Origin: a virus
DNA length: 64,000 bases
Strand: one strand, 5' to 3'
IMG/VR virus record: IMGVR_UViG_3300042465_002544
Span: 1-64,000 of that record
A program made the translations under genes and the position numbers. The notes beneath the pieces are model-generated. The model was not told the DNA's origin. It was given only the letters and a program-made list of their open reading frames with translations, and did no database searches. Shown here piece by piece: positions 34,839 to 62,685 of this stretch (the stretch's first letter is position 1; each line of letters starts with the position of its first letter).

Positions 34839-34868
34839 TTGACAGACTTGGGGGCGGTAGGCTATAAT
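34839..34868 (+). promoter_or_regulatory. Polymerase promoter TTGACA-N18-TATAAT within an inverted repeat
   Basis: TTGACA (34839-34844), 18-nt spacer, TATAAT (34863-34868). GGGGGCGGTAGGC upstream of the -10 and GCTTATCGCCCTC downstream can pair (allowing G-U) over about 13 bp, so the -10 lies in the loop of a near-palindrome. Likely regulated. Confidence 0.65.
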
Positions 34869-48212: not shown

Positions 48213-48242
48213 AAAAACCCTTGACTTTTGTTAGGGGTTTTT
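48213..48242 (+). terminator. Terminator overlapping a promoter
   Basis: AAAAACCC (48213-48220) can pair with GGGGTTTTT (48234-48242), followed by TG and the next -10. The loop contains the -35 box of the following promoter. It follows the peptidase stop by 14 nt. Confidence 0.6.
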
Positions 48243-48250
48243 GTTATAAT
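48221..48250 (+). promoter_or_regulatory. Promoter TTGACT-N18-TATAAT for a leaderless gene
   Basis: TTGACT (48221-48226), 18-nt spacer, TATAAT (48245-48250). The -10 ends six bases before the ATG at 48257. Confidence 0.7.
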
Positions 48251-48256
48251 TGGGGT

Positions 48257-48643
48257 ATGAGCGAATATGTATCTTGGAAAGCTGGAGATCCAAAAATAAA
48301 ACCAGCACCATTAAAAGTTAAACCAAAAACTTGGACTTTATTAACTTTTGATGAAGGAAATGTAATTACACCAAAAGCAAATGGTACAGCTATCTGGGGA
48401 TTCTATGTAAATGTAGATGAAACAGGTGGAGCAAAAACGATGAAGCTAAGATGGCTTCGTGAACCAAATGGTATTAAAGATTTCACTGGACAAAGAGTGC
48501 TTGATTTAGAAACTTCAACTATTCATAGCGATCTTTGGATGTTCAATGCAAAGAAAGGTCAGCCTGTTGGCATTGAGGTCTATCATGCAGGAGCAAGTGA
48601 CATGATAATTGTTACTCGTGAATGCAAAATGTGGATACCTTAA
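48257..48643 (+). CDS. Beta-rich protein of unknown function
   Basis: 128 residues; leaderless start at ATG 48257. An in-frame TTG at 48221 lies inside the promoter and is rejected. Residues about 28-125 look like a jelly-roll or lectin-like beta sandwich (GTAIWGFYVNVDETG, KTMKLRWLREP, QPVGIEVYHAG). Related small proteins occur among actinophage genes near lysins, but no function is clear. Confidence 0.6.
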   Translation: MSEYVSWKAGDPKIKPAPLKVKPKTWTLLTFDEGNVITPKANGTAIWGFYVNVDETGGAKTMKLRWLREPNGIKDFTGQRVLDLETSTIHSDLWMFNAKKGQPVGIEVYHAGASDMIIVTRECKMWIP

Positions 48644-48646
48644 TAG

Positions 48647-48658
48647 TATAATATAGTA
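48647..48658 (+). promoter_or_regulatory. -10 box of the tmRNA
   Basis: TATAAT (48647-48652), then six bases, then the first G of the tmRNA acceptor stem at 48659, so transcription likely begins at the mature 5' end. The -35 is not clear. Confidence 0.55.
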
Positions 48659-48911
48659 GGGGATGATCAGTTTCGACTTTATGTGAAAACTTATACACCA
48701 GCACAAGAGAGTTACTTGTAAAACTAAATAAATATAAATGGCAAAACACAAACTGCCTTCGCTTTAGCTGCATAGTTAAAAGCCGTCTGACGACTAGATA
48801 GGAACAGAAAGTCGTGTATGTAAGAAAATGTAAGAAATATCTTGACAATATTGCTGTGTAAGTGTATAATTGAAAACATAAAGGACGGCGGTGCAATTCC
48901 GCCCATCTCCA
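48659..48911 (+). ncRNA. ssrA: Compact tmRNA (transfer-messenger RNA)
   Basis: About 253 nt. The acceptor stem GGGGATG (48659-48665) pairs with CATCTCC (48904-48910) and includes a G3-U70 wobble, the alanine identity mark. The T-arm GGCGG/CCGCC is at 48887-48903; helix H2 is CTTTATGT (48677) with ACATAAAG (48876). Pseudoknot 1: ACAAG/CTTGT crossing AGTT/AACT (48703-48725). The tag frame is probably GGC AAA ACA ... at 48740, ending TAG at 48773-48775: GKTQTAFALAA (an AAT or ATA resume codon is possible). A second pseudoknot is TCTG/CAGA crossing ACGAC/GTCGT (48786-48815). CCA is not encoded. It should rescue stalled ribosomes with an Ala-charged tag of actinobacterial type. Confidence 0.92.
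48842..48870 (+). promoter_or_regulatory. Consensus promoter inside the tmRNA gene
   Basis: TTGACA (48842-48847), exactly 17 nt, TATAAT (48865-48870): twelve of twelve consensus bases. It lies between pseudoknot 2 and helix H2. Expected start is near 48877; the message would carry the T-arm hairpin as its leader, then the membrane protein gene. Confidence 0.75.
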
Positions 48912-48923
48912 CAAAGGATTAAA

Positions 48924-49205
48924 ATGGATTACAGTGAATGGAAGTTCCAGCAACTTCAAGGAAACATTCAGCCATCATATGAAAAATTAAGTACAGCATC
49001 AAAGTTTGCCTTTCTTGCTGTTGCTATATTTTTTTGGGCTGCAATATTGTTTGTAGAAAACTGGATAATAATGATTTTTCTTGGAACATTGCATTCGGTA
49101 TTTAATTTTATTCCAGCACTTGGATTTTGGACGGTGTTTTGGTTTAACCTTTTAATTGGAATTATTATTAATATTGTTAAGAAAAGTAGCAAGGTATCTA
49201 AGTGA
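48924..49205 (+). CDS. Small membrane protein, possible holin
   Basis: 93 residues from ATG 48924 (AAAGGATT upstream; an in-frame GTG inside the tmRNA T-arm is rejected). Two or three membrane spans: about 27-45 (FAFLAVAIFFWAAILFV), 46-62 (WIIMIFLGTLHSVFNFI) and 65-85 (ALGFWTVFWFNLLIGIIINI), then a Lys-rich tail. Size and topology suit a holin, and an M23 peptidase is encoded just upstream. The holin role is an inference; other membrane functions are possible. Confidence 0.55.
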   Translation: MDYSEWKFQQLQGNIQPSYEKLSTASKFAFLAVAIFFWAAILFVENWIIMIFLGTLHSVFNFIPALGFWTVFWFNLLIGIIINIVKKSSKVSK

Positions 49206-49612
49206 ATAAACTAGTCTTAGTTGACATTGATGGAACAGTAGCACATAGAACTAATCGTGATCCATTTGAATATGATAAGGTCTTAGAAGACCGCCCAGAT
49301 AATGAAACGATTGAGGTCATTACTGCTTTATGGAGAGCAGGATATAAAATTATATTTATCTCTGCTCGTGATGATTCCTGCTTTGATGATTCATATGAAT
49401 GGTTAAGGCTACATTGTCCTCCATTCATTAAATTGTATATGCGTAAAACTGGTGACTTTCGTAAAGATTCAATTATTAAAGAAGAGATATATCGTGAACA
49501 TATCGAACCGTTCTATGATGTATTTTGTGTCTTTGATGATCGCAATCAAGTTGTAGAAATGTGGAGAGAGATTGGTCTTAAATGTTTTCAGCCTGAGTAC
49601 GGTGACTTTTAA
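49202..49612 (+). CDS. HAD phosphatase, polynucleotide 3'-phosphatase-like
   Basis: 136 residues, GTG start overlapping the previous stop (GTGA). HAD motifs: LVDIDGTVAHR (nucleophile and acid/base Asp), IIFISARDD, the K of RKDSIIKEEIY, and VFCVFDDRNQVV followed by MWREIGLKCFQ, matching the phosphatase half of T4 polynucleotide kinase. It likely removes 3' phosphates (or 2',3'-cyclic ends) from nucleic acids. The kinase half and an RNA ligase are not seen in this window. Confidence 0.75.
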   Translation: MNKLVLVDIDGTVAHRTNRDPFEYDKVLEDRPDNETIEVITALWRAGYKIIFISARDDSCFDDSYEWLRLHCPPFIKLYMRKTGDFRKDSIIKEEIYREHIEPFYDVFCVFDDRNQVVEMWREIGLKCFQPEYGDF

Positions 49613-60583: not shown

Positions 60584-60612
60584 TTGACAACAATATCAGA
60601 AATTGATATAAT
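60584..60612 (+). promoter_or_regulatory. Perfect-consensus promoter for a leaderless gene
   Basis: TTGACA (60584-60589), 17 nt, TATAAT (60607-60612). The -10 ends five bases before ATG 60618. Confidence 0.82.
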
Positions 60613-60617
60613 ATAGT

Positions 60618-60983
60618 ATGAAAATATTAGTATATGGAACAGATAAGTTTGAGGACTACCCCACATTTATGCGTGGTATGGTAGTTGCTATTGAGGAAAA
60701 TATGAATAATAATGACGGTAGGCTTGATGTTTACACCGCAGGTCCACATAAAATCAACAACTTTGTAGCAGAATTTATTAACCGTAGCGAGACTATGTTT
60801 AAGCAAAATGGTATTAAAGCTAGATTTAACCGTGTTAGAAAAGCACAGGTAATTGAAGGCTTTGATACCTATGAGTTTGATCACGTTTTATCCTTTAATT
60901 CTAAAGAAGATCAAAGATTGTTTGACGTATTGTTGGATAAAGCAGAAAGTAATAAGATTAAATCATCTTATTACAAATATTAA
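60618..60983 (+). CDS. SLOG-like (YspA/YpsA-related) protein
   Basis: 121 residues, leaderless. KILVYGTDKFEDYPTFMRGM at the start looks like the first strand and loop of SLOG-superfamily (YspA/DprA-Rossmann) proteins, which may sense nucleotides; the rest alternates strands and helices (VYTAGPHKINNFVAEFINR). Several phages carry such genes. The assignment is tentative. Confidence 0.5.
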   Translation: MKILVYGTDKFEDYPTFMRGMVVAIEENMNNNDGRLDVYTAGPHKINNFVAEFINRSETMFKQNGIKARFNRVRKAQVIEGFDTYEFDHVLSFNSKEDQRLFDVLLDKAESNKIKSSYYKY

Positions 60984-62417: not shown

Positions 62418-62685
62418 GTGGGTCTTAAAAGCCCAATGCAGGGCTATGGATAAGGAAATGTTCTTTGACAAGTATGAGGAAGATGAAGATCTTGCCAAGG
62501 CTATTGATGAGAATGTATGCCTTCGTTGTCCTGTAATTAAAGAATGTTTTAACCAAGGCACAACCAATGAAGAATGGGGTGTTTGGGGTGGAATCTACCT
62601 TGTTGATGGTGAAATCAGTCAAGCAAGAAATGCACACAAATCAAAAGAGATCTGGCAAAGAATATTAGAGGCTGTAAATGACTAG
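62404..62685 (+). CDS. WhiB-family iron-sulphur regulator
   Basis: 93 residues from ATG 62404 (longer in-frame starts run through the previous gene and lack the family's usual N-terminus). Four cysteines in family spacing: C12 (KAQCRAMD), C39, C42 (CLRCP) and C48 (ECF), then the signature GVWGGIY and a basic KSKEIW end. WhiB-like proteins bind 4Fe-4S and the host primary sigma factor, and are confined to Actinobacteria and their phages. It may redirect host transcription or exclude other phages. Confidence 0.9.
   Translation: MLEDEWVLKAQCRAMDKEMFFDKYEEDEDLAKAIDENVCLRCPVIKECFNQGTTNEEWGVWGGIYLVDGEISQARNAHKSKEIWQRILEAVND

What the first reader, a model, noticed from the sequence alone, without database searches (positions are those of the whole stretch)
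48659..48911. Phage-encoded compact tmRNA with two pseudoknots and an actinobacterial tag
The acceptor stem with a G3-U wobble, T-arm, an 8-bp H2 and two H-type pseudoknots can be drawn by eye. Size is about 253 nt against over 350 nt in bacteria. The tag end AFALAA would feed host ClpXP/ClpAP-type proteases. Inference: keeps ribosomes running or changes tagging during infection.
Basis: partly seen in the sequence, partly recalled or inferred. Interest (0 to 1): 0.65.

Follow-up and report, generated by a model that had tools for sequence, protein, structure and literature searches.

The report
Compact phage tmRNA with embedded promoter
This uncultured virus of (most likely) actinobacteria carries its own shortened copy of the ribosome-rescue RNA (tmRNA), a gene already annotated in related Streptomyces phages; less expectedly, a consensus bacterial promoter sits inside the RNA gene, at the same place in all relatives examined.

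Summary
Window 48659-48914 (+) is a one-piece tmRNA gene: Rfam RF00023 scores 83.2 bits (cut-off 47), and ARAGORN reads tag GKTQTAFALAA. The acceptor stem with G3-U, T-arm, three-part helix H2, H5 with the stop codon, a strong second pseudoknot and a weak PK1 are all there. Thirteen distinct IMG/VR relatives (247-254 nt in ARAGORN form) keep the fold with compensatory changes. The phage is a distant cousin of Stanwilliamsviridae (Streptomyces cluster BE-type phages). All 11 of those tested carry a homologous 267-298-nt tmRNA. So this is a new member of a known kind. Best explanation: a working trans-translation RNA that borrows host SmpB, AlaRS and proteases. No SmpB is encoded; expression is untested; 4 of 30 polymerase-relatives' records have the gene.

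The parts
48659..48911 (+). tmRNA gene body, 253 nt to the discriminator base
   Evidence: ARAGORN; Rfam RF00023 83.2 bits; own-record search
48912..48914 (+). CAA at the CCA position (CCA not encoded)
   Evidence: sequence; same in most relatives
48659..48665 (+). acceptor stem 5' strand GGGGATG, pairs with 48904-48910 CATCTCC, G3-U wobble
   Evidence: invariant in 13 of 13; G3-U read by eye in the 11 Streptomyces-phage homologues (sequences)
48887..48903 (+). T-arm GGCGG-TGCAATT-CCGCC, T-loop with G at position 55
48678..48684 (+). helix H2a 5' strand (pairs with 48876-48882)
   Evidence: three pairs with compensatory change
48691..48703 (+). helix H2b (8 bp) and H2c (5 bp) 5' strands, pairing with 48862-48869 and 48852-48856
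48703..48725 (+). PK1: stem 1 ACAAG/CTTGT, stem 2 AGTT/AACT (weak)
48740..48775 (+). tag reading frame GGC...TAG, GKTQTAFALAA*
   Evidence: tags in relatives GTTQTAFALAA, GTTQTALALAA, GTTQNALALAA, GATQNALALAA
48762..48782 (+). helix H5 carrying the stop codon; one mismatch and one G-U in the window, perfect in most relatives
48783..48815 (+). second pseudoknot (PK2 position): stem 1 CCGTCT/AGAT(A)GG with bulged A, stem 2 ACGACT/AGTCGT, loop AACAGAA
   Evidence: covaries with the Streptomyces-phage tmRNAs; AACAGAA in 0 of 89 bacterial tmRNAs
48842..48870 (+). sigma-70-type promoter TTGACA-N17-TATAAT inside the tmRNA 3' half
   Evidence: conserved register in 24 of 24 phage tmRNAs against 89 bacterial controls
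48647..48652 (+). TATAAT ending 7 nt before the tmRNA 5' end, possible -10 of the tmRNA's own promoter (no good -35)
   Evidence: sequence; kept in some relatives, absent from others
48924..49205 (+). downstream ORF, 93 aa with hydrophobic stretches; start codon about 10 nt after the tmRNA end, with AAAGGAT before it
   Evidence: no Pfam match
62419..62595 (+). WhiB-domain gene, marker of an actinobacterial host
   Evidence: PF02467, 50.9 bits

Best explanation
It is a functional, reduced one-piece tmRNA gene carried by a tailed phage of actinobacteria. The RNA would be CCA-completed and charged with alanine by the host (G3-U, discriminator A), bind host SmpB and EF-Tu, enter ribosomes stalled on broken or nonstop mRNA, resume at codon GGC, add GKTQTAFALAA, and release the product to ClpXP/ClpAP-type proteases. 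During infection, when host RNAs and many mRNAs are cut, a phage-made supply would keep ribosomes recycling or replace host tmRNA lost to defence nucleases. Shown here: the gene, its fold, its conservation and the lack of a phage SmpB. Inferred: expression, charging, tagging and the benefit.
For: Rfam and ARAGORN detection. 98.7% of cells paired in 13 distinct relatives, with 5 pairs showing changes on both sides. PK2 covaries across two phage groups. The D-loop/T-loop contact switches in concert, A18 with G55 in the window group and G18 with U55 in the Streptomyces phages; the same A18/G55 combination is in 62 of 66 readable bacterial G55 tmRNAs. G3-U is invariant. The tag frame stays open and keeps the ALAA end while other residues change. 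The homologue is in 11 of 11 Stanwilliamsviridae-type phages tested. Loss of PK3 and PK4 is tolerated in known tmRNAs (PMC3968760).
Against: No expression or tagging data. No SmpB in the record or in 17 related records, so it depends wholly on the host. PK1 stem 2 is only 3-4 bp in most members. The gene is absent from 26 of 30 polymerase-relatives' records (some are fragments), so it is not essential to the group.
Confidence: 0.72

Rival explanations
1. The phage tmRNA is mainly a decoy: it titrates host SmpB, AlaRS or a tmRNA-cleaving defence nuclease, and so inhibits or spares host trans-translation rather than tagging proteins.
For: A nearly TLD-only tmRNA exists in mycobacteriophage DS6A, and a similar molecule strongly inhibits tmRNA, perhaps by titrating SmpB (PMC4131195). 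No phage SmpB is encoded.
Against: A decoy needs no tag frame, H5, PK2 or ALAA end, yet these are kept in the phage tmRNAs examined, except that three Streptomyces phages have a non-LAA end.
Confidence: 0.13
2. The locus is kept as much for DNA or transcript reasons as for tmRNA function: its 3' half is a promoter and leader for the next gene, and the RNA may be a secondary or decaying function.
For: Perfect TTGACA-N17-TATAAT inside the gene, conserved in register in 24 of 24 phage tmRNAs. The AAAGGAT-plus-ATG junction stays while the downstream gene differs between relatives.
Against: Compensatory changes in H2a, H2b, the T-stem and PK2 and the concerted D/T-loop switch show selection on the RNA fold itself.
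Confidence: 0.1
3. It is a recently captured host gene, on its way to loss, with no function.
For: Patchy distribution.
Against: Homologous tmRNAs sharing a PK2 loop motif absent from 89 bacterial tmRNAs are found in phages whose DNA polymerases are only about 55-56% identical, so the lineage is old in phages, and its fold is kept.
Confidence: 0.05

Closest known systems
tmRNA genes of Stanwilliamsviridae (Streptomyces phages Tomas, Braelyn, Riptide, Karp, Moab, Wakanda, BillNye and others)
   Same: One-piece tmRNA in a tRNA-rich region, 267-298 nt in ARAGORN form, same two-pseudoknot layout, same AACAGAA loop in PK2, internal promoter-like site in the same register; several tags end in FALAA.
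   Different: The window group is shorter (247-254 nt), AT-rich, has A18/G55 instead of G18/U55, a weaker PK1, and tags that begin with Gly.
Bacterial one-piece tmRNA (Rfam RF00023)
   Same: tRNA-like domain, H2, PK1, tag frame, H5 with stop codon, one downstream pseudoknot; passes the Rfam gathering score.
   Different: About 100-150 nt shorter than the 89 bacterial one-piece genes compared; PK3 and PK4 replaced by a short A-rich linker.
Other phage tmRNAs: mycobacteriophages Bxz1, Wildcat and others, Bacillus phage G, DS6A (TLD only), two-piece tmRNAs of marine phages such as Melnitz
   Same: Phage-borne ssrA (PMC4131195; PMC9004378).
   Different: DS6A lacks the message part; the marine forms are permuted two-piece genes; the mycobacteriophage genes were not compared here because the accessions tried were not held.

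Membership tests
tmRNA (RF00023) | Covariance-model score over the gathering threshold | tested here: met
   83.2 bits against 47
tmRNA (RF00023) | tRNA-like domain with G3-U wobble for alanine charging | tested here: met
   Invariant in 13 of 13 relatives
tmRNA (RF00023) | Tag reading frame between PK1 and H5, with the stop codon in H5 | tested here: met
   48740-48775, open and conserved in relatives
tmRNA (RF00023) | PK1 upstream of the tag | tested here: inconclusive
   Stem 1 solid; stem 2 is 3-4 bp in most members and disturbed in one
tmRNA (RF00023) | Pseudoknots PK2-PK4 downstream of the tag (usual, not required) | tested here: inconclusive
   Only one pseudoknot found, at the PK2 position; tmRNAs with fewer pseudoknots are known to be active
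tmRNA (RF00023) | Alanylation, SmpB binding and protein tagging | not testable with these tools
   Needs experiment
Stanwilliamsviridae-type phage tmRNA lineage | PK2 with bulged stem 1 and AACAGAA loop | tested here: met
   All 13 window-group and 11 Streptomyces-phage sequences; 0 of 89 bacterial. The motif was also a collection criterion, though the 11 Streptomyces-phage genes were fetched by Rfam without it
Stanwilliamsviridae (phage family) | Core genes (TerL, DNA polymerase) closest to this family | tested here: met
   TerL up to 67.5%, polymerase up to 56.5% identity; formal family assignment was not tested

The most novel reading that the evidence does not exclude
In this phage lineage the tmRNA gene is dual-purpose DNA: its 3' half encodes the H2 strand and tRNA-like end of the RNA and at the same time is a near-perfect sigma-70 promoter, with the tRNA-like end and the AAAGGAT site serving as the leader of whichever gene stands next.
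Probability: 0.55. Interest if true: 0.45.

Novelty: new member of a known kind. Interest (0 to 1): 0.32.

Why it matters
Phage tmRNAs are annotated but their role is unproven. This group provides natural minimal versions (about 250 nt, two pseudoknots, PK1 weak) for testing which parts of tmRNA matter, and relatives with and without the gene for testing what it gives the phage. The embedded promoter, if real, would be a clear case of two selection pressures on one stretch of DNA, and the coordinated 18/55 switch marks a tertiary contact under selection.

Tried and rejected
Megablast of 24 kb of the window against phage records gave nothing, so relatives were found through protein and pattern searches. 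The idea that the G55 T-loop is a special phage trait was rejected: many bacterial phyla have it, though no record named as actinobacterial was among the 119 loci of a capped scan. Mycobacteriophage cluster C records were not held under the accessions tried; phage Myrna has no tmRNA over the cut-off. The permuted tmRNAs with an identical T-arm (L082-L085, L089) are two-piece genes of another type. Many of the 26 contigs from the 16-mer pattern are chance matches in unrelated DNA. L152 gave no ARAGORN tmRNA because the locus is cut there; it is the same record as L098.

Full report
Observation. ARAGORN and Rfam both place a one-piece tmRNA at 48659-48912/48914 on the + strand of the window. Rfam gives 83.2 bits against a gathering score of 47 and covers the model end to end, with large central gaps. 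The last three bases are CAA, so CCA is not fully encoded. The window lies in a 71,051-base IMG/VR virus record.

Anatomy. Acceptor stem GGGGATG/CATCTCC with G3-U; H2 in three parts (7, 8 and 5 bp); PK1 with stem 1 ACAAG/CTTGT and stem 2 AGTT/AACT; tag frame 48740-48775, GKTQTAFALAA*; H5 around the stop codon; a second H-type pseudoknot with stem 1 CCGTCT/AGAT-(A)-GG, stem 2 ACGACT/AGTCGT and loop AACAGAA; an A-rich linker; T-arm. Relative to the Rfam model the PK3 and PK4 regions are missing.

Relatives. The DNA polymerase of the window found 76 IMG/VR loci. Rfam searches of the records and a conserved 16-mer gave thirteen distinct tmRNAs of 247-254 nt with tags GKTQTAFALAA, GTTQTAFALAA, GTTQTALALAA, GTTQNALALAA and GATQNALALAA. 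On their alignment the drawn structure pairs in 98.7% of cells, with five pairs changed on both sides; sliding the partners by 1-3 columns gives 34-47%. PK2 does not vary inside this group, so its support comes from the Streptomyces phages: with the AACAGAA loop as anchor, both stems form in nearly every sequence with quite different bases, and fit their own partner better than swapped partners (stem 2: 6.0 against 4.3 of 6; stem 1: 5.8 against 4.7 of 6). For Byblos the best-scoring stem 1 starts five bases earlier than in its relatives, and Braelyn and Riptide reach 5 of 6. PK1 is the weak element: stem 2 has 3-4 bp in most members, 5 bp in another register in one.

What phage. The closest isolates are Stanwilliamsviridae, Streptomyces phages of about 130 kb (polymerase up to 56.5%, terminase up to 67.5% identity). 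The record holds a WhiB gene, so the host is most likely an actinobacterium. All eleven isolates tested carry a tmRNA, 267-298 nt in ARAGORN form, several annotated with a tag in GenBank, and BE1 phages are described as carrying 43-48 tRNAs and one tmRNA (PMC5764925). A survey of 18,146 phage genomes found 402 with tmRNA (PMC9004378). The kind is therefore known.

How it works. The conserved features are those needed for trans-translation. SmpB is not encoded in the record or in 17 related records, so host SmpB must serve. A published review says tagging needs PK1 or a hairpin in its place, while PK2-PK4 can be replaced (PMC3968760), so a two-pseudoknot form is expected to work. The gene is present in only 4 of 30 polymerase-relatives' records searched with a model built from the group, so it is an accessory. 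A decoy role remains possible, because a TLD-only tmRNA occurs in phage DS6A and a similar molecule inhibits tmRNA (PMC4131195), but the kept message part speaks against it as the main role.

Elbow switch. In the window group the T-loop reads TGCAANT and the D-loop has AG before NTTCGAC; in the Streptomyces phages they read TTCGANT and GG. Among 66 bacterial G55 tmRNAs with a readable D-loop, 62 have A before that G. The two positions change together, as expected for a tertiary contact between 18 and 55. I do not claim that this covariation is unreported.

Embedded promoter. TTGACA-N17-TATAAT stands at 48842-48870, one of four perfect matches in the window where 0.1 is expected; at least two of the others end shortly before a gene (34839-34868 before 34903, 60584-60612 before 60618). 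In all 24 phage tmRNAs the same register scores 9-12 of 12. In 89 bacterial tmRNAs searched in the same interval the best scores are 9 (three cases), and among 5000 shuffles of the window stretch 2 reach 11 and none 12. Caveats: the 24 sequences are related; the bacterial controls are not actinobacterial; GAC at this place is part of the Rfam tmRNA consensus, which raises the -35 score; the best spacer is 16 in two of the Streptomyces phages. The downstream gene differs in appearance between relatives (93, 50 or 73-74 aa; judged by eye, no search between them) while the AAAGGAT and ATG junction is kept. The simplest reading is that this promoter feeds the next gene. No paper describing it was found in one search, which is not proof of absence.

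Verdict. Confirmed observation; ordinary in kind, a new and rather reduced member; interest moderate to low, mostly for the embedded promoter and the minimal architecture.

Noticed in passing
window 48842-48870: Perfect sigma-70 consensus promoter inside the tmRNA 3' half, in the same register in all 24 phage tmRNAs examined.
   Followed up: partly
L135, L137, L138 from about 1590 (phages Byblos, BillNye, Ankus): Their tmRNA tag, as read by ARAGORN, is 20 residues ending in LVTV (for example ANNIDAEYEALCAEYALVTV) rather than LAA, conserved in three phages: possibly a tag that does not send proteins to ClpXP.
   Followed up: no
window 48221-48257 and 60584-60618: Strong promoters whose -10 ends about 6-7 nt before the ATG, suggesting leaderless mRNAs.
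   Followed up: no
window 49202-49612: PNKP-type polynucleotide kinase 3'-phosphatase domain gene two genes after the tmRNA, possibly for RNA end repair near the tRNA cluster.
   Followed up: no
window 48887-48903 and 48668-48671: T-loop G55 with D-loop A18, a coordinated change from the Streptomyces-phage U55/G18; no record named as actinobacterial was among 119 loci of a capped scan for the G55 T-arm.
   Followed up: partly
L082, L083, L084, L085, L089: Permuted two-piece tmRNAs with tag ANDNWYYEEYRLAA in other viral contigs share the exact 21-base T-arm of the window.
   Followed up: no
L088, L091: A 342-nt one-piece viral tmRNA with the short tag AEPLRKAA, ending RKAA.
   Followed up: no
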